Of a stretch of 64,000 nucleotides of DNA, positions 30,214 through 46,110 are shown piece by piece. The stretch's first letter is position 1, and every line of letters starts with the position of its first letter. The translations under genes and the position numbers were made by a program. The stretch is from positions 124,001 to 188,000 of the forward strand of contig DUTT01000052.1 in the NCBI GenBank assembly GCA_012841925.1, written 5' to 3'. The notes below the pieces were generated by a model, which was not told where the DNA came from, made no database searches, and was given only the letters and a program-made list of their open reading frames with translations. Origin of the DNA: Clostridiales bacterium. Lineage in GTDB: Bacteria > Bacillota > Clostridia > Peptostreptococcales > Anaerovoracaceae.

Positions 30214-31632
30214 TTAAAGCTTACCTTCTCTCATAAACTGTGCATTCGTCCCGTCGATGGCATAAAACTCTTCTTCTGCCCGTTTTCCGATGGCATCGGG
30301 GCGGTCTTTGACCGCTTCGAGGTAACCCTCTTCTTCGATGTTGACGAGCTTGCGGTCGCGCATGATCACCTGACCTGCGACCACGGAGTGCGATACCTCT
30401 TCGCCTCTTGCGCTGTATACCAGATTGGGCACGATGTTTCTCATCGGATGGGTAAACACAGGCAGCATGGAGGGGAAATTCAGATCCACGGCGATAAAGT
30501 CCGCCTGCTTGCCTGCTTCGAGCGAACCGACCAGATCGCCGATGCCGACCGCTTTCGCACCCTCGATCGTCGCCATGCGCAGCGCTTTCCACGCCGGCAT
30601 CACTTCTGGATTCGCGTATTTAATCTTGTTGAACAGACAGACGTTCTTCATTTCGTGGATGATATTGTGACAGTTGTTTCCGGGTGCCTGGTCCGAACCA
30701 AGCGCGACGTAGCCGCCGGCTTCCTGGAATACGACGCTCGGGCACACGATGCCGTCGATGATGCCGATCGATGCCGGGTTGACGACCATGGATGCACCGG
30801 AGCGGGCTACGACCCTGGCCTCTTCGTCTTCGCAGTCCGTCAGGTGGATGGCGATCAGGTTTTCGTCGAGCAGGCCGATCTCTTCGAGAAATGCGACGGG
30901 CCGTTTTCCATAACGCTGAACGATCTGATATGTTTCACGGTCGCCCTGCTGCGTGTGCAGGTGGAGCTTCGTCTTTCGCTCTTTGACTACTTTTTGCGTC
31001 TGAAGCAGCATTTCAGGGCTGATGAAGTCCGGTCCCTGCGGCCCGAACAGAATCTTTATGTTGTCTTTATCGTGCCACTTATCGTACATGCGGATATTCT
31101 CGCGCAGTCCTTCTTCGCCCATGGCATCGTCAAACTCGTAGAGCTCGCCCGGATTGTAGACGCGTCTCTTCGCAGCGCGAAACATCAGCGTCAGATTCCC
31201 GCGGGCGCCGACTTTTTGGACGAATTCAGCCACGCTGTCAATTTCGTAGTTCTGATCGCCCAGTGTCGTCGTTCCCGCTTTGATTGCTTCGATAATCGCT
31301 ACGCGGCTTCCCTGTATCGAATCGTCCAGCGTTGCAGCGTTCGAAAACGGCTGAAGCCCGTACATCATCCAGTTGTTCGTGTCCTGCGCAAGACCCCGCA
31401 GGATGTTGTCCAGCGAATGCATGTGACCGTCGATAAAGCCGGGGAACACTGCGTGATGTTCGAGATTTAGGACTTCGTCTGCTTTGTATTCGCCGTCCAC
31501 TTTATCTGCATCGCAAAACTCAACGATTTTTCCGCCGTCCACCACGAGGGCTACGCCGGTTTTATAACCGACTCCCTCGCCGTCCATCGCGTAGAAGTGC
31601 GGTGCCTTTACGATCATATCTACTTTCTTCAT
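30214..31632 (-). CDS. Metal-dependent amidohydrolase (TrzA/SsnA-like)
   Basis: 472 residues from the ATG at 31632 (GGAGG 5 nt upstream). Metal ligands of the cytosine-deaminase-like amidohydrolases are seen in FIDGHMHS, HLHTQQGD and IHLTDCED, with the late Asp in GSDQAPGNN. The C-terminal beta sandwich holds GKQADFIAVDL. It likely deaminates or dechlorinates an N-heterocycle or hydrolyses a cyclic amide. The substrate cannot be read. An MFS transporter follows immediately. Confidence 0.85.
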   Translation of the reverse strand: MKKVDMIVKAPHFYAMDGEGVGYKTGVALVVDGGKIVEFCDADKVDGEYKADEVLNLEHHAVFPGFIDGHMHSLDNILRGLAQDTNNWMMYGLQPFSNAATLDDSIQGSRVAIIEAIKAGTTTLGDQNYEIDSVAEFVQKVGARGNLTLMFRAAKRRVYNPGELYEFDDAMGEEGLRENIRMYDKWHDKDNIKILFGPQGPDFISPEMLLQTQKVVKERKTKLHLHTQQGDRETYQIVQRYGKRPVAFLEEIGLLDENLIAIHLTDCEDEEARVVARSGASMVVNPASIGIIDGIVCPSVVFQEAGGYVALGSDQAPGNNCHNIIHEMKNVCLFNKIKYANPEVMPAWKALRMATIEGAKAVGIGDLVGSLEAGKQADFIAVDLNFPSMLPVFTHPMRNIVPNLVYSARGEEVSHSVVAGQVIMRDRKLVNIEEEGYLEAVKDRPDAIGKRAEEEFYAIDGTNAQFMREGKL

Positions 31633-31677
31633 TTTGTCCTCCATACATCAGCAATGCTGTATCAAACCGATACGAAC

Positions 31678-32532: not shown

Positions 32533-33690
32533 CTATTTTTCGTATACGTACAGGCCGCGCTCTCCGAGGTGGGCGACCATCTCGTCGAACTTCTCTCCGA
32601 TAAAGTAGCTTTCCGGATCGATGACGCCGTACAGACCGCTGTTGTCCTTTGCAGCCATCATGGCGCCGATGGCGATCGGATACGCCGTTGCAAGCTCCAT
32701 CGACGTCAGTTTGTTTTCGTCGTCGGAGTAAGTTTTGAGTTCGTATTTTTTCTCGACGTATTTACCGTTCAGCAGGCCTTTTCCAACCACCAGCAGGTAG
32801 GTCATGTCGCGAACGCCCCAGACTTTCTTCCAGAGCTTCCGGAAAATGACTTCCGATACGTCGATTGGGCGCAGCTTTACGCCGTTTACTTCGATTTCTT
32901 CGGTGCTGAAGAAGCCGATCTCTTCGAGTTCTCTCATCTTAGCGAGGTGACCCGGCCAGCGCAGCGTTGTCTCAGCCAGTTTCTTGATGCCCTTGCCGGC
33001 CATCGTCTTGGTGAGCGAGCACAGTCCGTCGGTGTAGAATACTTCGGCCAGGCCGTGTCCCGGAATCTGAATCATGTCGAATACTTCCAGATTGGGTTTT
33101 ACGACAGGCTCACCGTCTTCGAACACGGTCGAAGGAGTGATGTACATATCGAGCATCGCTTCCAGGCTGAAGGCTTCCATGTAGTCCAGCGGGCATGTGC
33201 CCTTCTCTGCCGGGATTCCACCGACGTAGATGATGCCTTCTTCGAGCTGATCGAATTCGTGCTCGAGCTGACCGATGCAGATGTTTGCAAACCCGGGAGC
33301 AATTCCAAGCCCCGGAATCGCCAGAACTTTAGCATCCACAAGCGCCTGATGATGCTCGTGGTGTTTGTCCCACTGCCAGAAATCGGAAAATACTGCGTGC
33401 GTGTTTCCTGCTTTGGCAAGTCCTTCGTACACAGCGTTCGTATACTCCAGCCCGTGAGGCAGACAGATGATGCTCACGTCGTTGTCTCTCATCAGAGCGG
33501 CTGTTTTATCCACATCCAATACGTCGAACTCCACAAACGACGCTCTGGGATCCGGAACGAGTTCCTTCGCAAGCTCCAGATTTTCATGATCGACGTCCGC
33601 ATACACGACTTTTGCATCCTTATCGAAGTTCAGGATGTCGTACCCGACGACGCGGCCCTGCAGGCCTGCGCCTAATACCAAATACTTCAT
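32533..33690 (-). CDS. Saccharopine dehydrogenase-like oxidoreductase, copy 1
   Basis: 385 residues of the saccharopine/lysine-6-dehydrogenase family. The N-terminal Rossmann motif is GAGLQGRVVG; the catalytic domain holds GIAPGFANICIGQLE, GGIPAEKGTCPLDY and RWPGHL. It should oxidise or reduce an amino acid at a secondary or primary amine with NAD(P). A second gene of identical length and very high similarity lies 200 bp upstream (33890-35047); the copies differ mainly in scattered conservative positions. AGGAGG precedes the ATG, and it has its own promoter. Substrate unknown: lysine, saccharopine or related. Confidence 0.85.
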   Translation of the reverse strand: MKYLVLGAGLQGRVVGYDILNFDKDAKVVYADVDHENLELAKELVPDPRASFVEFDVLDVDKTAALMRDNDVSIICLPHGLEYTNAVYEGLAKAGNTHAVFSDFWQWDKHHEHHQALVDAKVLAIPGLGIAPGFANICIGQLEHEFDQLEEGIIYVGGIPAEKGTCPLDYMEAFSLEAMLDMYITPSTVFEDGEPVVKPNLEVFDMIQIPGHGLAEVFYTDGLCSLTKTMAGKGIKKLAETTLRWPGHLAKMRELEEIGFFSTEEIEVNGVKLRPIDVSEVIFRKLWKKVWGVRDMTYLLVVGKGLLNGKYVEKKYELKTYSDDENKLTSMELATAYPIAIGAMMAAKDNSGLYGVIDPESYFIGEKFDEMVAHLGERGLYVYEK

Positions 33691-33889: not shown

Positions 33890-35047
33890 TTATTTTTCGT
33901 ACACATTGATGCCCCTGCGTCCGAGCTGAGCGACCATCTCGTGGAACTTGTCGCCTACAAAATAGATCTCGGGGTCGACGATACCCTTCAGTCCGCTGTT
34001 GTCCTCTGCGATCATCTGCGCAGCGATGGAAATGGGATAGGCTGTTGCAAGCTCCATGGAAGTCAGCTTGGCTTCGTCGTCCGAATACGTCTTCAGCTCG
34101 TAGGATTTTTCGATATACTTACCATCCTTGAGCCCTTTGCCGACCACCAGCAAATAGGTCAGGTCCCGAACACCCCATACCTTTTTCCAAAGGTTCTTAA
34201 AGATGACTTCCGATACGTCTTTTGGGGTGACCTTTACACCGTTGACTTCGATCTCTTCCGTACTGAAGAATCCCAGATCGTTGAGCTGCCTCATCTTTTC
34301 GATGTGACCCGGCCAGCGCAGCGTGGTCTCGGCCAGTTTTTTGATGCCCTTGCCCTGCATGTTCTTTGTGAGCGTGCACAGACCATCGGTATAAAACACC
34401 TCCGCCAGTCCGTGACCCGGAATCTGAATCATGTCGAACACGGTCAGCGGGGGTTTTTCGACGAGTTCGCCGTCCTCAAACACGATGGAGGGCGTGATGT
34501 ACATGTCGAGCATGGCCGACAGACAGAACGCTTCCATATAGTCGAGCGGGCACGTTCCCTTTTCAGCGGGTATTCCGCCTACGTAGATGATTCCCTCTTC
34601 CATCTGATCGAACTCGTGTTCGAGCTGCCCGATGCAGATATTCGCAAAGCCCGGGGCGATACCCATGCCAGGAACCGCCAGCACGTTGGCGTCGACCAGC
34701 GCTTGCTGATGCTGTTGATGACGCTCCCATACCCAGTAATCCGAAAATACCGCCTTTACATTTCCTGCTGCTGCCAGTCCCCTATATACCGAATGCGTAA
34801 TTTCCTCCCCGTGAGGAAGGCACACGACGATGCTGTCGCTCTGCCTCATCAGGGCAGCCGTCTCCTCCGTGTCGAGCACGTTGAACTCCACAAACGACGC
34901 TCTGGGATCCTTGATGAACTCCTTTGTGATTGCCAGATTTTCCGGATCGATGTCCGCATAGATCACTTCGGCGTCTTCTACGTATTTCAGGATATCGTAT
35001 CCGACGACGCGCCCCTGCAGGCCCGAGCCAATGATCAATGTCTTCAT
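33890..35047 (-). CDS. Saccharopine dehydrogenase-like oxidoreductase, copy 2
   Basis: 385 residues with the same domain order and motifs as copy 1 (GSGLQGRVVG, GMGIAPGFANICIGQLE, GGIPAEKGTCPLDY). Differences lie mostly in the first 130 residues and in short charged stretches, so cofactor or substrate preference could have shifted. It has its own promoter, AGGAGG site and terminator, so the two copies can be expressed separately. The arrangement points to a recent tandem duplication that included the promoter. Confidence 0.85.
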   Translation of the reverse strand: MKTLIIGSGLQGRVVGYDILKYVEDAEVIYADIDPENLAITKEFIKDPRASFVEFNVLDTEETAALMRQSDSIVVCLPHGEEITHSVYRGLAAAGNVKAVFSDYWVWERHQQHQQALVDANVLAVPGMGIAPGFANICIGQLEHEFDQMEEGIIYVGGIPAEKGTCPLDYMEAFCLSAMLDMYITPSIVFEDGELVEKPPLTVFDMIQIPGHGLAEVFYTDGLCTLTKNMQGKGIKKLAETTLRWPGHIEKMRQLNDLGFFSTEEIEVNGVKVTPKDVSEVIFKNLWKKVWGVRDLTYLLVVGKGLKDGKYIEKSYELKTYSDDEAKLTSMELATAYPISIAAQMIAEDNSGLKGIVDPEIYFVGDKFHEMVAQLGRRGINVYEK

Positions 35048-36889: not shown

Positions 36890-39685
36890 TTATACCTTTC
36901 TCGCCTGCACGAGATTTGTATGCTGCGGATTACCCCTGGCAAGCGGCGTCGGACGCGACGACGTCAGCACGTTGATGCATCCCCGCTCATCCGCACCGTC
37001 CGCTGCCGGTCGAAACCATCCTCCCTCCGAAAGCGCAACGACACCCTTCATAATGCGGTCTGTCACAAGCGCCGGTATGCGTACACAGCCCCGGTCGTTG
37101 AACACTTCCATCAGTTCGCCGTTTTTGATCCCCCGCTCGCAGGCATCTGCCGGATGGATCCAGAAAGCCGGCGGTTCGAGCTCTTCCATGAGAGGATTGT
37201 TCTCGTGGATCGAGTGGCATCGTCTCTTCGTGTGGTAGCCGATGAGCTGCAGCGGATACTTTTCTTTAAGCGGATCGTGCGGTCCCTCCGGGCTTGGCAC
37301 GTAGCGCGGCAGCCCCGGGATTTCGTCCGGGCGCCCCATATCGTACAGCGTCTTGGAAAAAATCTCAATCTTCCCTGACGGCGTATTAAAACATCCGTTC
37401 TCTTCGATGAGCTTCTGAAAAGCGATGTACGGTTCCCCAGCCTCGTAGACAAAGCCGCCGGCTTCTTTTAACCCAGCAAGCGGTGGCAGTTCCGGCTCTG
37501 CATCGCGCGCCTGATCGTACAGGTGCACCATCCAGTCTTCGAGCGACGGTTTGCCGTCCGTAAACAAATCCTCCAGCCCGAGGCGGGTCGAAACATCCCG
37601 GATCCACTCGTACTCAAAGCGGCATCCGAACAGAGGCTCCATGCAGCGTTGATTATATAGCAGGTAATTATCCGTAACCCAGGGGGGGACGATGTTGTCG
37701 ACTTCGAAAAACGACGGTGCGGGCAGCACGAGATCGGCAAACTTCGCACCGGAGGTCAGAAATACATCGGAAACGACGATCATTCTGATTTTGCTTTCGT
37801 CGGCCAGCAGTGCAGCCGTACGGTTGACATCCGAATGCTGCGTAAGCAGCAGCGAGTTTGCCAGATTGAACACGAGCTCGATGGACGAATCCAGTTTTTC
37901 AACACCGGTCACTCCGTGTTCTTCCGGCGTCAGGCGAGTCGCATCTTCAACGGCATCCGTCCAGAGAAACGAAGGAATCGCCCCGGGAAACGGGTTGTGC
38001 ACCGCCGTAAACTCCGGATGCGTCCTCGTGGGAATCCACGGCGTACCGCCGCTGCTGCCCCCGCTCTTGCCTACGTTCCCTGTGATGCACGCCAGCGCCG
38101 CCATGCTGCGATAGAACTGCTCCCCGTTGCCGGTCCGCTGGGGCCCCAGGCCGGGAAGAATGCAGGCCGGTTTCGTTTTGGCGTACTGCTCGGCCAGTCG
38201 CCGAATGTTCTCAGCCGGTATGCCGGTGATGCTCTGCGCCCACTCGGCCGTCTTTTCGATTCCGTCCTTCTCTCCGGACAGATAGGCCGCATAACTTTCG
38301 CCGTCCGGCACGCCTTCCGGCATGTGCGCTTCGTCGAAGCCCACACAAAAGGCATCCATAAATGCCTGATCCTGCAGCTTATTCTGCAGGATGTGCCAGC
38401 ACATGGCGTCGGCAAGCGCCGAGTCCGTCGAAGGTTTGATTGCAATCCACCAGTCCGCATACGTCAGCACGGTTTCGCTCTTCCTGGGGTCGATGACAAC
38501 GATGGGGATGCCCTGCTCTTTCGCCTGTGTAAGCGTGCGGTTAAAAAACGGGCCGAAGTGATTGGCAGAAGGGTTGTGCCCCCACAGGATGATCATGCCG
38601 GCATGGAGGATGTCGCTTTCCGTGTGACCGCATTCGAGTGTGCCGTACACGTACGGCGTCACGTAATTGGCGCACGCCGCGCTGTAGTAGTTGTAGTACT
38701 CCAGATAGCCGCCCGAAAGACCCAGCAGACGCTTCATAAAGCGGTCGCCGCGCAGCAGCGCTGATACGCCGGACGCCGGCGTTACAAAGCGCGAAGACGG
38801 ACCAGCCTCTATCCCGGTGCGTTCGATTTCGCGCGCAATTTTTTCCGCCGCCTCCTCCCAGCTGATCCTGCGGAACCGCCCTTCCCCACGCTTCCCGATG
38901 CGCTCCATCGGATAGCGAAGCCGGTCGGCTGTCAAAAACGTCTGGCGGTATGCCCTGCCGCGCGCGCATCCTGTAAACGGCAGCACATCAGTATTCGGCG
39001 TAATCTCGAGTACGCAACCTTCCTGCACACGGGCATTCATCAGGCATTTAGCGCCGCAGTCGTTGAAGCTGGCAATCGCCACACATCGCTCCGGTTCGAG
39101 CGGTATCGGCTCGCCGGCCGTCCAGGCGTCAGCGCTCTTTACAGTCGAAGCAGTCGGGAATTCGTCCGTATCGAAGAGGTGGATGTCTTTTCCTTTTACG
39201 GCCCGACTCATGTGGGAACAAAGAGCCCGGAGCTCCGGATGATCGCTGTAGAAAAGAAGCGCTTCCCGTACCGCGCGCACCGTATCGACGACAAATGCGC
39301 CGATAAAATCCTCTGCCTTACCGGCCAGGTGCCGATCACCGGACGATTCGCAGGTCGACAGGTACTCCAGGAATCGAAACTGCTCACCGATGTAATCCGC
39401 CGGATTGCCGTCCATAAGGACCGGCTCGTAGCCGCATTCCTTATAGAAGCGTATCACATCCAGCGTCACTTCGTTGCACAGTTCGCGCGTTCCCGTCTTC
39501 GCGCACGATGCCCAGAGCGGTACAAACACATCCGCCTGCGTCCCCTTGAGCAGGTAATCGTATTCGATTTGGGAAATCGAAGAATCGATGCCCATATGGC
39601 GAGATACGAGGCGCCAGCGATTCAGATCTTCAAAAAATAAACGGAAGCAGTGCCAAAGGATTGTCCGGTCGTTCTGTTTAGTCAT
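36890..39685 (-). CDS. TorD-like chaperone domain fused to a DMSO-reductase-family molybdoenzyme
   Basis: 931 residues from the ATG at 39685 (GGAGG 7 nt upstream; an adjacent ATG at 39688 is only 4 nt away). Residues 1 to about 170 look like a TorD/DmsD chaperone (all-helical, with EPVLMDGNPADYIGEQFRFL). Residues from about 195 on are a molybdopterin-bis(MGD) oxidoreductase of the DmsA type: GRAYRQTF, RLRYPMER, the likely Mo-ligand Ser335 in NYYSAAC, ILWGHNPSANHF, GNVGKSGGSS and a C-terminal ARGNPQHTN. The N-terminal [4Fe-4S] site has C210-x3-C214 and C240, but Ser206 where the first Cys is expected; C201 might substitute. No Tat signal, so cytoplasmic. No B or C subunit gene lies nearby. Confidence 0.88.
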   Translation of the reverse strand: MTKQNDRTILWHCFRLFFEDLNRWRLVSRHMGIDSSISQIEYDYLLKGTQADVFVPLWASCAKTGTRELCNEVTLDVIRFYKECGYEPVLMDGNPADYIGEQFRFLEYLSTCESSGDRHLAGKAEDFIGAFVVDTVRAVREALLFYSDHPELRALCSHMSRAVKGKDIHLFDTDEFPTASTVKSADAWTAGEPIPLEPERCVAIASFNDCGAKCLMNARVQEGCVLEITPNTDVLPFTGCARGRAYRQTFLTADRLRYPMERIGKRGEGRFRRISWEEAAEKIAREIERTGIEAGPSSRFVTPASGVSALLRGDRFMKRLLGLSGGYLEYYNYYSAACANYVTPYVYGTLECGHTESDILHAGMIILWGHNPSANHFGPFFNRTLTQAKEQGIPIVVIDPRKSETVLTYADWWIAIKPSTDSALADAMCWHILQNKLQDQAFMDAFCVGFDEAHMPEGVPDGESYAAYLSGEKDGIEKTAEWAQSITGIPAENIRRLAEQYAKTKPACILPGLGPQRTGNGEQFYRSMAALACITGNVGKSGGSSGGTPWIPTRTHPEFTAVHNPFPGAIPSFLWTDAVEDATRLTPEEHGVTGVEKLDSSIELVFNLANSLLLTQHSDVNRTAALLADESKIRMIVVSDVFLTSGAKFADLVLPAPSFFEVDNIVPPWVTDNYLLYNQRCMEPLFGCRFEYEWIRDVSTRLGLEDLFTDGKPSLEDWMVHLYDQARDAEPELPPLAGLKEAGGFVYEAGEPYIAFQKLIEENGCFNTPSGKIEIFSKTLYDMGRPDEIPGLPRYVPSPEGPHDPLKEKYPLQLIGYHTKRRCHSIHENNPLMEELEPPAFWIHPADACERGIKNGELMEVFNDRGCVRIPALVTDRIMKGVVALSEGGWFRPAADGADERGCINVLTSSRPTPLARGNPQHTNLVQARKV

Positions 39686-39744
39686 CATCGTTCCTCCAAC
39701 TGCTTCCGTTCGTACTACAATATCCTGCTGAGCTGTGCGGAGCT

Positions 39745-40734
39745 CTACTTGCCGCTCAGATTCGCTTTAACGCGCGCTTCCGCCAGGCTGATCGCGTTGT
39801 GGAACGCCTGCTCTTTCAGCTCTTCGTATTCTTTCAGATCGTCGGCGAGCACAGCCGACCACTCTTCCGCAAACGCGCCGCTTGTAATCGCGTCGTACTG
39901 CTCTTCCAGGAACTTCCGGATCGGCGCCGTATTCACTTTGCCAAACCGGGAAAGCTGTCCGTACTGGCTCGTGCGGGAATGCATCGGAAGCTGCTTAAAC
40001 AATCCGACATCCGCCATTTTTTCGAGCATCACGGCCGGCTCCTTGGACAGGTACAGCTCGGTGAGAATCGCTTCTTCGGAAAATCCTTTTTCCGTAAACA
40101 GCTTAAATGCTTCGTTCATCACGTTCATGATCAACGGCCATACCGCCTGTTCGCTCATCAGGTCCAGATACGTCTCTTCGTTGAATGTCACTTCGATGGC
40201 ACCGGCTCTTGTCGAACCCATGGCCTTGGCGAGTCCCAGCGCAATGTCTTTTGCCTGACCGGTCGCATCCTGCTGCACGACGACAAACGTCGGGAATCCC
40301 GTGCCGTTTTCGTACGTCTCGCGCACGCCCTGCCCGATCATGCGGGGGGCGACCATGATCACATCCAGATCCGCTCTCGGCTTGATGTAGCCGTAGGTGA
40401 TGTTGTAGCCCGACGAGAAATTCAGCACGCTGCCCGCCTTCAGGTTCGGCTCGATTTCCTGTTCGTAAATAGCGGGAGCCACCTCATCCGGTATCAGAAT
40501 GAATACGATGTCTGCACGCTTTGAGGCATCCGCTATGGACAGCACCGGAAAACCGTCTTCGTTCGCCTGCGTCCACGATTCGTCGCGCACGCTGCCGATC
40601 ACGATGTCTTTTACACCCGAATCGCGCATGTTCAGCGCCTGGGACCGTCCCTGGTTTCCGTAACCGATGATCGCAATCGTCTTGCCTGTGACAAAGGAAA
40701 TATCTCCGTCCTTGTCGTAGTAAATTTTGCTCAT
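39745..40734 (-). CDS. ilvC: Ketol-acid reductoisomerase (class I)
   Basis: 329 residues. An NADP-binding Rossmann domain (AIIGYGNQGRSQALNMRDSG, loop GSVRDESW) precedes the helical KARI domain with metal ligands (EVTFNEETYLDLMSEQAVW) and an HSRTSQYG segment. It isomerises and reduces 2-acetolactate in branched-chain amino-acid synthesis. No other ilv gene is near; it sits between a glycyl-radical activase and a molybdoenzyme, so a catabolic role on a related 2-hydroxy-3-keto acid is possible. AAAGGAG precedes the ATG by 6 nt. Confidence 0.85.
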   Translation of the reverse strand: MSKIYYDKDGDISFVTGKTIAIIGYGNQGRSQALNMRDSGVKDIVIGSVRDESWTQANEDGFPVLSIADASKRADIVFILIPDEVAPAIYEQEIEPNLKAGSVLNFSSGYNITYGYIKPRADLDVIMVAPRMIGQGVRETYENGTGFPTFVVVQQDATGQAKDIALGLAKAMGSTRAGAIEVTFNEETYLDLMSEQAVWPLIMNVMNEAFKLFTEKGFSEEAILTELYLSKEPAVMLEKMADVGLFKQLPMHSRTSQYGQLSRFGKVNTAPIRKFLEEQYDAITSGAFAEEWSAVLADDLKEYEELKEQAFHNAISLAEARVKANLSGK

Positions 40735-40805: not shown

Positions 40806-41732
40806 CTACAGCCCCAAGATATCTACTTCGATGCCAGCCTGTTCCAGCACAGTCCGTATGGAATCCAGGGTGCTTTGAGAAGGTGGTTCAAACACTCGGG
40901 CCCGCTCACCGATTCTTTCGGATTTCGAAACCCCGAGCGTATGGTACGGCAGCAGCGTAGCGCGTTGCAATTCATTTTGAATCAGAAATGCGGCCGTTTC
41001 CTCGATCAAAGGTTCGGTATCGTTGTAGCCTTTGATCAGAGGCATGCGGATAGTGATTTTCTGCCGGATCGCTTCATCGGCGGCAAGCCGCCTCAGGTTA
41101 TCCAGTATCAGGCGGTTGTCGACGCCCGTCCCTTCGGCATGTACTTCCGGATTCATGCATTTGATATCGTAGAGGATATCCGTCACGCCCGGATGCGAAG
41201 CGATCCGAAACAGCGCATCGCCGTCCCCGTGCCCCGATGTATCCAGGCATACGCCGATACCCCGCTCGTATGCAAGCCGGACCATCTCCTCCACAAACGC
41301 CGGCCTCGAAAGCATCTCCCCTCCGGAGAGCGTAATCCCGCCGCCGGTGTGCCCGTAAAACCCGCTGTCCTTTGCCGCTTCGTTCATCAGCTCTTCGGCT
41401 GTCTTCTCCTCAGCGACGGATGCGAGTGCACCGGCGTAGCAGGCATCGACGCACAGCAGGCACGTGTCGCAGGCGCTGCGATCTACTTCGATTTTTCCAT
41501 CGACCAGCGCAAGCGCACCGTTTGGGCAGGCCTCGATGCAGTACCCGCATCCGATGCACCTGTTTGTAAGGAGAATCAGCTGCGGACCGAAGTCGATCAT
41601 CTCGGGATTGTGGCACCATGCGCATCGAAGCGGACATCCTTTAAAGAAAATCGTCGTGCGGATGCCCGGTCCGTCCTCCACAGAAAATTTTTGAATGCTG
41701 CCGACCGGCGCCGTCATGGGTATTTGCGTCAC
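40806..41732 (-). CDS. Glycyl-radical-enzyme activating protein (radical SAM)
   Basis: 308 residues from a GTG at 41732 (7 nt after AGGGGGG). The radical SAM motif C-x3-C-x2-C is in GCPLRCAWCHNPE, followed by a two-cluster ferredoxin insert (CIGCGYCIEACP and CDTCLLCVDACY), then GGITLSGGE and DTSGHGDGD. It uses S-adenosylmethionine to abstract hydrogen from the conserved glycine of the partner enzyme encoded 13 nt upstream. The ferredoxin insert is typical of activases for dehydratase/lyase-type glycyl-radical enzymes rather than pyruvate formate-lyase. Confidence 0.93.
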   Translation of the reverse strand: MTQIPMTAPVGSIQKFSVEDGPGIRTTIFFKGCPLRCAWCHNPEMIDFGPQLILLTNRCIGCGYCIEACPNGALALVDGKIEVDRSACDTCLLCVDACYAGALASVAEEKTAEELMNEAAKDSGFYGHTGGGITLSGGEMLSRPAFVEEMVRLAYERGIGVCLDTSGHGDGDALFRIASHPGVTDILYDIKCMNPEVHAEGTGVDNRLILDNLRRLAADEAIRQKITIRMPLIKGYNDTEPLIEETAAFLIQNELQRATLLPYHTLGVSKSERIGERARVFEPPSQSTLDSIRTVLEQAGIEVDILGL

Positions 41733-41745
41733 TGGTATACCCCCC

Positions 41746-44118
41746 TTATGCCAGATGCGCCGTGCGGTCGATGATCGTATCCTGTGCGGCTTTATCGAGC
41801 TCGGTAAAGTATGCCATATAGCCTGCGACGCGGACCATCAGTCCCCGGTGTTTTTCCGGATTCTTCTGGGCGTCAATCAGCGTCTCGTTGTCGACGACGT
41901 TGATCTGGATATGCTCACCGCCGTTGTCGAAGTACGTCTTGATGACGCCTTCCACAATTTCCAGTCCTTTTTCTCCCTGAATTCCCCTGGGATCGAAGCG
42001 CAGGTTGAACAGCGCACCGTCGTGGAACGCCGTCTGGTTGATAGCTCCGACCGATTTGACGGTCGCCGTCGGCCCGCTGATATCGCGGCCCATCACCGGT
42101 GAAGAGTTGTCGCTGAACGGCTCGTAGGCTTTGCGCCCGTCCGGTGTCGCGCCGGTCATCTCACCGTGCGAGATGTTGACGGTCTGCGACAGGTTGCAGA
42201 ACGAATACTTGCCGCCCCGGGAGTCATCGTACTCCTGGACCGTTTCGGCAATGTATGTCAGATAGTCGCGCACGAGTCCGTCCACTTTCGGAATATCGTT
42301 GCCAAACTTGGCCGGTTTGTTGATCAAAAGCTGCCGGATCCGCTCTTCGCCTTCGAAGTTCTTATCGAGGATCGCCACAAGCTCTTCCAGCGTCAGCGTT
42401 CCATCTTTAAAGACGACCTGATCGATCGCTTCCAGCGAGTCGCCCAGATTCGCCGGCCCGGTTACAAACATACCTGCCGTGGAGTACTTGGCTCCGCCCT
42501 GCTGTACCGACTTACCTGATTCAATGCATCCGTCGATGGCCATGGACGCCATCATGACCGGCAGCCTCTCCGCGTGGATCGGAACGATGAGGTTATAGCC
42601 GTCGCGAATCATCTCGTAGAAGTGAACTGACTGCTTTTTGACCGCATCCATGATGTCCTCGACGCTCGTAAACTCCGAGAGTTCGCCCGTTTGCAGACCG
42701 ACGAGTTCGCCTGTAAGCGGATCGATACCGTTGTGCAGCGCCAACTCGAGCATCTTCGGTGCGTTGACGTAGCCCGCATCCGGACTGCCGTCCGTCGTAC
42801 CGCCGCCCGGAGCAGGCTGTATGCATCCGACGATGCACCAGTCTCTGGCTTCTTCGATGGTACAGCCTTTACCCTGTACCATGCGCATCGCCGCTTTGTC
42901 GCTGAAGAAGCCGGGGTTGGCCATACCCTTTTGCACCATCTCCGCACCTTTGCGGAGCAGCTCCGGAGGCGTACCGTCGTGAACGCGAAGCGCCAGGACC
43001 GGCTGTGTCGTCTGAAGTGCGGCCCCGGCATCCAAACACAGATAAGACAGCGGATTTGTCGCATCCCCACCATGGCGGTCCACTCCGCCTACCATCAGAA
43101 TTTCCCACATGGGATAGCCGGCAAACGATTTCGAATACCATTTATCGCGGACTTCGTATACTTCGCAGCACTTCAGATAAAAGCATTCGAGGAGCTCCAG
43201 CACATCTGCGTCATCGGTGAGAAGACCCCGCTCCCGATCCAGCTGCAGATACGGATACATGTACTGGTCAAATCGCCCGAAGCCGCAGGCCGTCGTCGGT
43301 GCCTCGATGTGAAACGACACCTGAATCAGCCATACAAACTGCAGTGCCTCATGAAAGCTACGCGGTGGATTGGCAGGCACGTGGCGGCAGTTTTCAGCGA
43401 TGACGAGCAGTTCGGCTTTCCTTGACGCATCCGACTCGGCCGCCGCCATTTCTTCGGCCTTTTCCGCGCAGCGTTCCGCATAGCGGATGATGCCTTCGGC
43501 CATGATGATGCAACCGGTCCAAAAATCGATCTTCGGCTGTCTGGATACATGGCCGCCTTTTGCGCGTTCTTCCTCGATCAGCTCCCGGCAGCGGGCGATG
43601 TGACCCGAAAGTCCCAGCGACAGCAACCGGCTGTAGTTGGGCGTCGTCTCTCCTGATACGCCGTTTCTGCACCCGACCGAGATGAGGTCTTTCTGCCTTG
43701 CGTCTTCGATCTCGGGAGGCAGGATACTCGGCGCGAGATCTTCCACAGCTTTACCTTCCCAGTATTCGAACAGCTTCAGAATTTTCTCTTTGTCTTCGGG
43801 CGTGATGTCGTACGGGTCGGTCGTGCGCGTTGGAAACTCATCGAGCTCGTCGCGCAGCCAGCCGGTGGATGTGTATTCCATAAACAGGTTCGCCCCTTTG
43901 TACGTATTCGTGGGCGACCCGACGATGAGTTCGTCCGGGAATATGCACACCGTCATGTGCTCCATGATGTACGACATGACCTTCGCGCGGAATATGGGAG
44001 CCGCTTCCCCTGCATATAGCTGATAGGCTTCGGTCGCAAGCTCCAGATGCTCCGCCGTGATATTCGGCCGCGTATCGAAGTAACGAGTTTTCATCCTGTG
44101 TAAGCGTTCGTTTAGCAT
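41746..44118 (-). CDS. Glycyl-radical enzyme of unassigned substrate
   Basis: 790 residues from the ATG at 44118 (AGAAAGGA 7 nt upstream). The C-terminal glycyl-radical motif RVAGYMAYF (Gly766) and the active-site cysteine Cys432 (in IVGCIQPAPGGG) are present, with SHGEMTGATPDGRKA and FDPRGI near the end. Dehydratase- and lyase-type members usually have G-C-V-E-P at the active site, with Glu two residues after Cys acting as base; here that residue is Gln434. The enzyme therefore falls outside the well-known choline lyase, glycerol/propanediol dehydratase and hydroxyproline dehydratase signatures as I know them. Neighbours are an activase, an alcohol dehydrogenase and an ATC-hydrolase-family protein. 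Confidence 0.9.
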   Translation of the reverse strand: MLNERLHRMKTRYFDTRPNITAEHLELATEAYQLYAGEAAPIFRAKVMSYIMEHMTVCIFPDELIVGSPTNTYKGANLFMEYTSTGWLRDELDEFPTRTTDPYDITPEDKEKILKLFEYWEGKAVEDLAPSILPPEIEDARQKDLISVGCRNGVSGETTPNYSRLLSLGLSGHIARCRELIEEERAKGGHVSRQPKIDFWTGCIIMAEGIIRYAERCAEKAEEMAAAESDASRKAELLVIAENCRHVPANPPRSFHEALQFVWLIQVSFHIEAPTTACGFGRFDQYMYPYLQLDRERGLLTDDADVLELLECFYLKCCEVYEVRDKWYSKSFAGYPMWEILMVGGVDRHGGDATNPLSYLCLDAGAALQTTQPVLALRVHDGTPPELLRKGAEMVQKGMANPGFFSDKAAMRMVQGKGCTIEEARDWCIVGCIQPAPGGGTTDGSPDAGYVNAPKMLELALHNGIDPLTGELVGLQTGELSEFTSVEDIMDAVKKQSVHFYEMIRDGYNLIVPIHAERLPVMMASMAIDGCIESGKSVQQGGAKYSTAGMFVTGPANLGDSLEAIDQVVFKDGTLTLEELVAILDKNFEGEERIRQLLINKPAKFGNDIPKVDGLVRDYLTYIAETVQEYDDSRGGKYSFCNLSQTVNISHGEMTGATPDGRKAYEPFSDNSSPVMGRDISGPTATVKSVGAINQTAFHDGALFNLRFDPRGIQGEKGLEIVEGVIKTYFDNGGEHIQINVVDNETLIDAQKNPEKHRGLMVRVAGYMAYFTELDKAAQDTIIDRTAHLA

Positions 44119-44226: not shown

Positions 44227-44919
44227 TCAAATCACCTGAAAATCAGTATCCATATACCCGCACAGCGTTTTGGCCATATCCGGTCCGTACTCAGCCCGGA
44301 AGTCTTCGAGCACTTTGTCCGCTACCGCTCGTCCTTCCGAACCGAAAATCGATTCGCTGATGAGCCGGAATGTCTTGTACACGTGCCCGGTGTGGTAGTC
44401 AAAGCCTCTGACGTTCGCAGAGTCCTTTTCGAATGTCTGCTCTTCCGAAAAGTGGGCGCCCCGCATAATCTGGATACAGTAGTCGTGGTCGTTGATGCTC
44501 TGCGGCACTTCGAACACGAGATCCGGATTGAAACCCGAAGCGATCCCGCGATCCAGGTGCGTGCAGTACAGCACACCGCACTCGCTGGCACCCATTTCTT
44601 TAAACTGCCATGCCCAGGGGCAGGCTTCGATGTATTCCTCGTGGTCGGGCGCAATCGAAACGGTCCGTCCAGCGAAGCCTCCGGTTACACGCTCTGCAGC
44701 TTCCGTCTTCTGCCACTCTCCATATATGCGGTACGATGTAAAGTCAAGCGGCTTGCCGTCCCGTATCGCTCTCTGTGCCATGCGGGATCCGCGTTGACGC
44801 GCGTATACGGTCGTCATGTGGGCAAACGCTTCGGTGCCTCTGTTTCCGAACGCGCTCTTCAGCTCTTCATAAAACCGCGCCACGACGAACGCATGGCTCA
44901 ACTCGGAAAAAACCTGCAT
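44227..44919 (-). CDS. L-2-amino-thiazoline-4-carboxylate hydrolase-family protein
   Basis: 230 residues with the PF14196-type pattern: CPWAWQFKEMGASECGVLYCTHLDRGIASGFNPDL is the recognisable core (Cys/Trp and HxD-like residues). The family name comes from a thiazoline ring hydrolase in cysteine production, but most members are uncharacterised and occur in anaerobe catabolic operons. GGAGGAG lies 4 nt before the ATG. It sits 12 nt after the alcohol dehydrogenase gene and 108 nt before the glycyl-radical enzyme gene; that gap holds a CTGCCGG/CCGGCAG hairpin (about 44165-44195) which could attenuate the downstream part. Confidence 0.75.
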   Translation of the reverse strand: MQVFSELSHAFVVARFYEELKSAFGNRGTEAFAHMTTVYARQRGSRMAQRAIRDGKPLDFTSYRIYGEWQKTEAAERVTGGFAGRTVSIAPDHEEYIEACPWAWQFKEMGASECGVLYCTHLDRGIASGFNPDLVFEVPQSINDHDYCIQIMRGAHFSEEQTFEKDSANVRGFDYHTGHVYKTFRLISESIFGSEGRAVADKVLEDFRAEYGPDMAKTLCGYMDTDFQVI

Positions 44920-44931
44920 GTCTCTCCTCCT

Positions 44932-46110
44932 CTAGCGCGCCATTCGGTAGATGCCGGCGACATCCGCCACCTTCAGTTTTTTGACGCAGCCCACCGTAAT
45001 CTCATCTCCGAGGCAGCACTTGTCCGCCATGTCCAGAATCTGCTCTTCCGTGGGTTCGATCCCCAGTTCGTAAAGAGAAACCGGCATGCCGATGGAGCGC
45101 AGAAAGTCTTCCATCGCTACGATTCCTGCGAGAGCCGCTTCTTTCGCGTCCAGGTCGGCGCTTACCCCCATCACGTTGCGCGCAAACGTCGCAAACCGCT
45201 CCGGTGCAGCGTCGCATACATAACGCGCCCAGCTGCCCCATACCGCAGCGAGACCCGCTCCGTGTGCCACGTCGAACAGGCCGCCCAATTCGTGTTCGAG
45301 TCGGTGCGATGCCCAGTCGCCGCCGTCGTTTCCGCACTCGGTCAGGCCGTTGTGCGACAAGCTGCCCGCCCACATCACCTCGGCGCGCGCCCGGTAATTC
45401 TCCGGTTCTTCCCTTAAGATACGCGCGTACTTCATCACGGTTTTCAAAAGCGTTTCGCTGATTCCGTCCGTGATATCCATGCTGCCGCTCATGTTAAAAT
45501 AGCGCTCAATCGTGTGCATCATGATGTCTGTGCATCCGCTCTGCGTCTGATAATCGGGCAGCGTATAGGTCAACTCCGGATTCATGATCGCAAAGCACGG
45601 CCTGGACAAATCGCTTCCGTAGCCGCGCTTGTACCAGCCGTCTTCGTTTGTTATGACCGAAGAATTGCTCATTTCGCTCCCGGCCGCAGCGATGGTCAAA
45701 ATGGCACCGATGGGCAGACAGGCTTTCGCCTCTCTTTTGTAATCGTACAGCTCCCACACATCGCCTTCTTCAGCCGCACCGTACCCGATGGCCTTCGCCG
45801 AATCGATGACGCTGCCGCCACCGACCGCCAGTATAAAATCGACGCCCTCCGACCGGCACAGCCTGATGCCCTCATACACTTTGGACAGCCTCGGATTCGG
45901 CACGACACCACCGAGTTCGACGTAGGCGATTTCCGCTTCGTCGAGCGCACCTGTCACCCGATTGAGCAGCCCCGAGCGCTTTGCGCTCTGTCCGCCGTAG
46001 TGAATCAGCACTTTCCGGCAACCCTGCTGCTTAACGAGCTCGCCGACCTCCAGATCCGTATCTTTTCCGAATACGACTTTCGTCGGCGTATAATATTGAA
46101 AATTCAACAT
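44932..46110 (-). CDS. Iron-containing alcohol dehydrogenase (BdhA/YqhD-like)
   Basis: 392 residues. The NAD(P)-binding motif GGGSVIDSAKAI near residue 97, a segment AAGSEMSNSSVITN, and metal-binding histidines in EHELGGLFDVAHGAGLA and further downstream assign it to group III Fe-dependent alcohol dehydrogenases of the butanol dehydrogenase/YqhD kind. It would reduce an aldehyde or ketone, plausibly the product of the glycyl-radical enzyme in this operon. GGAGG lies 5 nt before the ATG and 18 nt separate it from gap. Confidence 0.9.
   Translation of the reverse strand: MLNFQYYTPTKVVFGKDTDLEVGELVKQQGCRKVLIHYGGQSAKRSGLLNRVTGALDEAEIAYVELGGVVPNPRLSKVYEGIRLCRSEGVDFILAVGGGSVIDSAKAIGYGAAEEGDVWELYDYKREAKACLPIGAILTIAAAGSEMSNSSVITNEDGWYKRGYGSDLSRPCFAIMNPELTYTLPDYQTQSGCTDIMMHTIERYFNMSGSMDITDGISETLLKTVMKYARILREEPENYRARAEVMWAGSLSHNGLTECGNDGGDWASHRLEHELGGLFDVAHGAGLAAVWGSWARYVCDAAPERFATFARNVMGVSADLDAKEAALAGIVAMEDFLRSIGMPVSLYELGIEPTEEQILDMADKCCLGDEITVGCVKKLKVADVAGIYRMAR

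What the first reader, a model, noticed from the sequence alone, without database searches (positions are those of the whole stretch)
41746..44118. Glycyl-radical enzyme with GCIQP at the active site instead of GCVEP
Cys432 and Gly766 are intact, but the residue two after the catalytic cysteine, a Glu base in dehydratase- and lyase-type enzymes, is Gln434. Loss of that base implies a different reaction or a different proton relay.
Basis: partly seen in the sequence, partly recalled or inferred. Interest (0 to 1): 0.7.

Follow-up and report, generated by a model that had tools for sequence, protein, structure and literature searches.

The report
Glycyl-radical enzyme clade with moved carboxylate
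This is an intact radical enzyme from anaerobic gut-type clostridia in which the acidic residue that its known relatives need beside the catalytic cysteine is always glutamine, while a new acidic residue appears at a nearby pocket site, marking an apparently uncharacterised enzyme subfamily that probably acts on a positively charged, amino-acid-like compound.

Summary
P0001 (790 aa) has Cys432, Gln434 and Gly766. The Gln is not a local oddity. All 76 non-redundant relatives at 53% identity or more have Gln there, and 75 of 76 also carry Glu (Glu157) at the site that is His164 in glycerol dehydratase, His160 in HypD and Asp216 in CutC. In a phylum-wide sample of 87 glycyl-radical enzymes, Cys+2 was Glu in 67, Ser in 15 and Gln in none. 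The clade is monophyletic (support 1.0) and mostly confined to one family, probably Anaerovoracaceae. It falls below every NCBIfam equivalog cut-off. Its nearest characterised clade is HplG, which has CXE. Engineered Glu-to-Gln variants of HypD and IslA are inactive, so a natural, invariant Gln is meaningful. The base is therefore not simply lost: the carboxylate seems to have moved across the pocket. Neighbours (LysP-like permease; AKR, SDR or Fe-ADH reductases; AraC regulator; activase) suggest 1,2-elimination on a cationic, amino-acid-like substrate giving a carbonyl that is then reduced. The substrate is unknown and no activity was shown. I found no described family with a natural CXQ motif. 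New variant of a known kind.

The parts
41746..44118 (-). Glycyl-radical enzyme, 790 aa, PFL-like + Gly_radical domains
   Evidence: AlphaFold2 model pLDDT 88.8, pTM 0.90
42823..42825 (-). Cys432, predicted thiyl-radical cysteine
   Evidence: aligned with GDH Cys433
42817..42819 (-). [quoted passage not shown]
   Evidence: 76/76 in clade; 0/87 in phylum survey
43648..43650 (-). Glu157 (GAG), proposed relocated carboxylate at the GDH His164 / HypD His160 / CutC Asp216 site
   Evidence: 75/76 in clade; alignments; site equivalence CutC-Asp216/HypD-His160/IslA-Gln193 from PMC8473560
42778..42780 (-). Asp447 (same number in GDH), second conserved pocket carboxylate
   Evidence: 76/76
43288..43293 (-). 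Thr276-Ala277, replacing GDH His281-Ser282 and the HplG Asp at the Ser282 position
   Evidence: 75/76 each
41821..41823 (-). Gly766, glycyl-radical site in RVAGY
40806..41732 (-). Radical-SAM activase with CxxxCxxC and ferredoxin-type clusters, 13 nt downstream
   Evidence: TIGR02494 285 bits, over cut-off 174; gaps
39745..40734 (-). KARI-like reductase paralogue, catalytic Lys replaced by Arg (APK to APR); found only in the window's genus
   Evidence: the genome also holds a stronger KARI elsewhere
44227..44919 (-). ATC-hydrolase family protein (PF14196), upstream of the GRE; kept in a sister species (L172)
44932..46110 (-). Iron-containing alcohol dehydrogenase, BdhA-like; kept in L172
36890..39688 (-). 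DMSO-reductase-family molybdoenzyme with a TorD-like N-terminal domain, last gene of the tight gene row; kept in L002 and L003

Best explanation
P0001 belongs to an apparently uncharacterised subfamily of glycyl-radical 1,2-eliminases. Shown by sequence: the Cys432/Gly766 radical pair and the activase are intact, Gln434 is invariant, and Glu157 and Asp447 are (nearly) invariant. Inferred mechanism: the glycyl radical makes a thiyl radical on Cys432, which takes a hydrogen from the substrate carbon beside the leaving group. The acid/base work that the CXE Glu (with its His partner) does in known eliminases is done by Glu157, which enters the same pocket from the beta-1 site; Gln434 only hydrogen-bonds. 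A negative Glu157 with Asp447, and no His281/Ser282, suggests a cationic substrate, such as an amino acid or amine. The product would be a carbonyl compound that a partner reductase (AKR, SDR or Fe-ADH, depending on the species) reduces as an electron sink, as in the glycerol dehydratase / propanediol dehydrogenase pair. The substrate is not known; 5-hydroxylysine and beta-hydroxy amino acids are candidates only.
For: Fixed Gln434 + Glu157 + Asp447 in the clade. The pair change His/Glu to Glu/Gln lies on the stem of a monophyletic clade whose sister pair (L150, L260) keeps His/Glu (support 1.0). HypD His160 and Glu436 lie 2.5 A apart, and both are essential (PMC7077986). The beta-1 site is acidic in CutC (trimethylammonium substrate; alignment, PMC8473560) and in survey proteins related to the N-methyl-hydroxyproline dehydratases (8id1, 8iof). 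Reductases lie within 4.5 kb in 30 of 65 clade loci against 4 of 66 other GRE loci (the reference proteins came from clade loci, so this is biased). A LysP-family permease adjoins 13 of 65 loci, both near the window protein (69-71% relatives) and in a deep branch (L141). The structure model matches eliminases best (propanediol dehydratase 9rco and glycerol dehydratase 1r8w, Z 48.8, rmsd 1.6 over 777 residues; CutC Z 48.2; HplG Z 47.3; decarboxylases 42-43, succinate synthases 39-41, PFL 34).
Against: The LysP-like permease keeps the residues that bind the amino acid backbone but has Gly, Ser, Ser and Cys where LysP uses Asn104, Trp105, Gln218 and Ser377 (against PMC12764776), so lysine itself need not be the cargo; 15-16 of 65 loci have an NhaC-type antiporter instead. 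The window's own genus has a different neighbour set and no LysP-like gene beside the GRE. About half of the loci show no reductase nearby. A second clade (His/Gln) lost the CXE Glu without gaining Glu at beta-1, so compensation is not a general rule.
Confidence: 0.45

Rival explanations
1. Same known chemistry, rearranged: the enzyme is an ordinary diol or amino-alcohol eliminase on a familiar substrate, and the Glu/Gln arrangement is an equivalent alternative to His/Glu.
For: Best sequence and structure matches are diol and glycerol dehydratases (588 bits, Z 48.8); Asp447 is kept; the Fe-ADH in the window resembles butanol/propanediol dehydrogenases.
Against: Pocket residues His164, His281, Ser282, Tyr339 and Glu435 of glycerol dehydratase are all changed; no microcompartment or CoA-linked propanediol genes were recognised around the GRE; amino-acid-type permeases at some loci.
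Confidence: 0.2
2. Different reaction class: decarboxylation, or radical addition as in succinate synthases, where no CXE base is needed and Gln434 binds a carboxylate or carbonyl.
For: PFL-type enzymes in the survey carry Ser at Cys+2, so non-eliminase glycyl-radical enzymes can lack this Glu; Gln suits carboxylate binding (inference).
Against: Closest relatives by tree and fold are eliminases; decarboxylase and succinate synthase structures score lower; no extra small subunits of the kind used by HPAD or BSS were noted beside the GRE.
Confidence: 0.15
3. Several substrates: the clade holds paralogous subgroups with different partners (AKR, SDR, LysP-like, NhaC-like, M20 hydrolase, KARI/ATC), so only the proton-relay design is shared and the window enzyme has its own genus-specific substrate.
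For: Genomes G071, G112 and G154 carry two or more members; neighbour sets follow tree subgroups; KARI-like, ATC and Fe-ADH genes occur only in the window's genus.
Against: Pocket signature residues are nearly invariant across the whole clade, which argues for similar substrates.
Confidence: 0.15
4. Inactive or regulatory pseudo-enzyme.
For: Engineered E-to-Q variants of HypD and IslA are inactive (PMC7077986, PMC8473560).
Against: Cys, Gly and the adjacent activase are conserved in the clade; dN/dS about 0.04; no degenerate copies seen among 76.
Confidence: 0.03

Closest known systems
[quoted passage not shown]
   Same: Nearest characterised clade in the tree (support 1.0 for the joint group); same fold (Z 47.3, rmsd 1.7); amino-acid substrate
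   Different: 36% identity; CXE (GCIEP), Asn at beta-1 and Asp at the GDH Ser282 position, against Gln, Glu and Ala here
Glycerol / 1,2-propanediol dehydratase (1r8w, 5i2a, 9rco)
   Same: Highest bit score (588) and Z (48.8); Cys, Gly and Asp447 conserved; gene paired with an Fe-ADH in the window
   Different: His164, Glu435, His281, Ser282 and Tyr339 become Glu, Gln, Thr, Ala and Trp
CutC, choline trimethylamine-lyase
   Same: Acidic beta-1 residue in a G[D/E]T-P-Y motif: CutC GGDTCPGY against SGETTPNY
   Different: CutC has CXE; P0001 scores 526.6 against a family cut-off of 1050. 5fav is an engineered E491Q CutC, not a natural CXQ
HypD and N-methyl-cis-4-hydroxyproline dehydratases (6vxc, 8id1, 8iof)
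   Same: Eliminases of amino-acid substrates; survey relatives of 8id1/8iof have Glu at beta-1
   Different: All keep CXE (HypD: PMC7077986; 8id1 and 8iof GCVET)

Membership tests
Glycyl-radical enzyme superfamily | PFL-like and Gly_radical domains, radical Gly motif, catalytic Cys in the Cys loop | tested here: met
   PF02901 607 bits, PF01228 105 bits; C432, G766
Glycyl-radical enzyme superfamily | Adjacent radical-SAM activase with CxxxCxxC | tested here: met
   40806-41732; TIGR02494 over cut-off; FKGCPLRCAWC
GRE eliminases | CXE motif in the Cys loop (PMC7077986, PMC8473560) | tested here: not met
   C432-I433-Q434; Gln in 76/76 of the clade
GRE eliminases | Carbon-heteroatom elimination activity | not testable with these tools
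   needs an enzyme assay
HplG (hydroxyproline C-N lyase) | HplG pocket: Asn at beta-1, Asp at the GDH Ser282 site, GCIEP | tested here: not met
   Glu157, Ala277, GCIQP; the tree places it in a separate clade
Glycerol/propanediol dehydratase | His164, His281, Ser282, Glu435, Asp447 (GDH numbering) | tested here: not met
   only Asp447 kept
CutC choline TMA-lyase | TIGR04394 equivalog cut-off 1050 bits and CXE | tested here: not met
   526.6 bits; CXQ
HypD, HpfG/HpsG, indoleacetate and hydroxyphenylacetate decarboxylases | NCBIfam equivalog cut-offs (1000-1150 bits) | tested here: not met
   511, 508/480, 436 and 334 bits
Pyruvate formate-lyase | Adjacent double Cys in the Cys loop | tested here: not met
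   single Cys, GCIQP; TIGR01255 126.7 against 994
LysP lysine permease (neighbour gene at other loci) | Side-chain pocket Asn104, Trp105, Gln218, Ser377 of PaLysP | tested here: not met
   Gly, Ser, Ser, Cys in L183 permease; Gly33, Glu112, Phe215, Ser216, Lys162 kept (PMC12764776)

The most novel reading that the evidence does not exclude
A glycyl-radical eliminase subfamily that has moved its catalytic carboxylate from the Cys loop to the beta-1 site (His/Glu to Glu/Gln) and uses it on an undescribed cationic amino-acid-type substrate, giving Anaerovoracaceae a previously unknown reductive amino-acid fermentation step.
Probability: 0.3. Interest if true: 0.75.

Novelty: new variant of a known kind. 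Interest (0 to 1): 0.55.

Why it matters
[quoted passage not shown] Glu-to-Gln variants of two such enzymes are dead. A natural, invariant CXQ clade with a matching Glu elsewhere suggests a second way to arrange acid/base chemistry in this pocket and gives direct mutants to test it (Q434E, E157Q/H, and the double swap). The clade is common in one family of gut and rumen anaerobes (about 60 of 296 sampled genomes at 53% identity or more), so its reaction may be an undescribed and frequent step of anaerobic metabolism. It also warns against annotating these genes as 'formate C-acetyltransferase/glycerol dehydratase'.

Tried and rejected
Chance, sequencing error or a lone mutant: rejected (76/76; dN/dS about 0.04). 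Membership in a named family by NCBIfam: all equivalogs below cut-off. A strict lysine permease as evidence for lysine as substrate: weakened, because the side-chain pocket of the permease is changed. 5-Hydroxylysine: kept only as a candidate; no paper in the held library links it to a glycyl-radical enzyme reaction (one search found one unrelated review). Text search for GCIQP or GCVEP motifs: nothing, but the library holds only open-licence papers. The N-methyl-hydroxyproline dehydratases were checked as possible natural CXQ enzymes and have GCVET. The structure model gives no coordinates, so distances could not be measured. Whether CXQ arose once or twice (this clade and the His/Gln clade) is undecided: both need two steps on the tree, and the joining node has support 0.70.

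Full report
What is there. The gene lies at 41746-44118 on the minus strand and encodes 790 aa, with Cys432 and Gln434 in GCIQP and Gly766 in RVAGY. It has full PFL-like and Gly_radical domains. A radical-SAM activase follows 13 nt downstream. The same-strand row is Fe-ADH, ATC-hydrolase-like, GRE, activase, KARI-like and molybdoenzyme, with gaps of 12, 108, 13, 71 and 56 nt. The genome assembly is 1.61 Mb in 93 contigs, 89% complete.

The Gln is a clade property. Relatives were collected from genome contigs and from 296 genomes of the window's own family. The family is probably Anaerovoracaceae, an inference from the names Emergencia, Anaerovorax and Allocopromorpha and the lineage. All 76 non-redundant proteins at 53% identity or more have Gln at Cys+2. 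Codons are 71 CAG and 4 CAA; dN/dS to an 87% orthologue is about 0.04, with dS saturated. A sample of 391 genomes of the class gave only two genomes outside the window's own family, with 43-47% relatives, so the clade is mostly confined to its family; a few loci carry Oscillibacter or Lachnospiraceae names.

How unusual is it? An evenly drawn phylum sample (149 genomes) yielded 87 glycyl-radical enzymes after alignment: Cys+2 is Glu in 67, Ser in 15 (mostly PFL-type), Gln in none. [quoted passage not shown] E436Q in HypD and E470Q in IslA abolish activity in those papers. A GCVQP chain in the PDB (5fav) is an engineered E491Q CutC, not a natural case.

The carboxylate has probably moved rather than vanished. 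Aligned with glycerol dehydratase (1r8w), the pocket reads: Cys433 to Cys432, Glu435 to Gln434, His164 to Glu157 (75/76), His281 to Thr276, Ser282 to Ala277, Tyr339 to Trp338, while Asp447 is kept (76/76). The His164 site is the one that carries His160 in HypD, Asp216 in CutC and Gln193 in IslA (PMC8473560; the CutC alignment GGDTCPGY against SGETTPNY is). In HypD that His and the CXE Glu sit 2.5 A apart and both are essential (PMC7077986). A Glu at this site would therefore put a carboxylate next to where the CXE Glu used to be. This is an inference from alignment; no coordinates of the model were available to measure it.

Phylogeny. The Glu/Gln clade is monophyletic (support 1.0). Its sister is a pair with the ancestral-type His/Glu combination (L150, L260; support 1.0). 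Next comes a second Gln clade that keeps His at beta-1 (7 sequences, support 0.998), then a His/Glu trio, and then the HplG clade. Whether Gln arose twice, or once with one reversal, cannot be decided (two steps either way). HplG (hydroxyproline C-N lyase) is the nearest characterised enzyme.

Fold. The AlphaFold2 model (pLDDT 88.8, pTM 0.90) aligns over its whole length with diol/glycerol dehydratases (Z 48.8), CutC (48.2), HypD (47.4) and HplG (47.3), and less well with decarboxylases (42-43), succinate synthases (39-41) and PFL (34). Differences below 1 are ties; a shared fold does not show function.

Neighbourhood. Across 65 clade loci, an AraC-type regulator is within 4.5 kb in 43, an SDR in 18, an NhaC-type antiporter in 16, a LysP-family permease in 13, an AKR in 9, and KARI/Fe-ADH/ATC only in the window's genus (identities). 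At least one reductase is near 30 of 65 clade GREs against 4 of 66 other GREs, but the probes came from clade loci, so that contrast is inflated. Different unrelated reductases filling the same slot suggest that the GRE product is a carbonyl. The LysP-family permease is closest to LysP (548 bits NCBIfam, below its cut-off of 735; 489 bits to 9eyd), but the residues that read lysine's side chain are replaced, while those that hold the amino-acid backbone are largely kept (PMC12764776). This suggests an amino acid that is not lysine itself.

Mechanism proposed. Shown: radical machinery intact, Gln434/Glu157/Asp447 fixed. Inferred: hydrogen abstraction by the Cys432 thiyl radical, acid/base catalysis by Glu157 (with Asp447), Gln434 as a hydrogen-bonding residue, 1,2-elimination of an amine or hydroxyl group, and reduction of the carbonyl by the partner enzyme. 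Acidic residues at the beta-1 site also occur in CutC and in relatives of N-methyl-hydroxyproline dehydratases, both of which handle ammonium-type substrates; that supports a cationic substrate but does not prove it.

Window genus. Here the neighbours differ: an Fe-ADH resembling BdhA, an ATC-hydrolase-family protein, and a KARI paralogue with its catalytic Lys changed to Arg in all genus members examined (the role of that Lys is from general knowledge of KARI), alongside a stronger KARI match elsewhere in the genome. The window enzyme may act on its own substrate; its nearest relatives outside the genus (69-71%) mostly have the LysP-like permease and in one case an AKR.

Verdict. A real, conserved, apparently undescribed subfamily: a new variant of a known enzyme kind. 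The literature check was limited to open-licence papers.

Noticed in passing
window 36890-39688 (-): DMSO-reductase-family catalytic subunit (TIGR02166, 785 bits) with an N-terminal TorD-like chaperone domain (PF02613, residues 40-119) in one polypeptide.
   Followed up: partly
window 39745-40734 (-): Ketol-acid reductoisomerase paralogue with the catalytic Lys (APK) replaced by Arg (APR) in all four genus members checked; metal-site EET..L..EQ motif kept in the window copy. The genome has a stronger KARI match elsewhere.
   Followed up: partly
L151, L153-L156, L159, L195: A second, separate clade of glycyl-radical enzymes with CXQ (GCVQP) but His at beta-1, an Arg at the GDH Trp445 site and no Asp447.
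   Followed up: partly
L239 (phylum survey): A glycyl-radical enzyme with GCVVP (Val at Cys+2) and Glu at the beta-1 site: another loss of the CXE Glu together with a beta-1 Glu.
   Followed up: no
L141 and L143: Two members of the clade in the same short stretch of contig; one copy in L141 has Ala at the Glu157 site, suggesting divergence after duplication.
   Followed up: no
window 32533-33690 and 33890-35047 (-): Tandem saccharopine-dehydrogenase-like paralogues (PF16653) of equal length, 385 aa each, next to an amidohydrolase (30214-31644).
   Followed up: no
L010 7863-9734 (-) and homologues at 43 of 65 loci: AraC-type regulator of about 620 aa with a cupin, a central HTH and about 350 C-terminal residues without a Pfam match, usually divergent from the GRE.
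   Followed up: no
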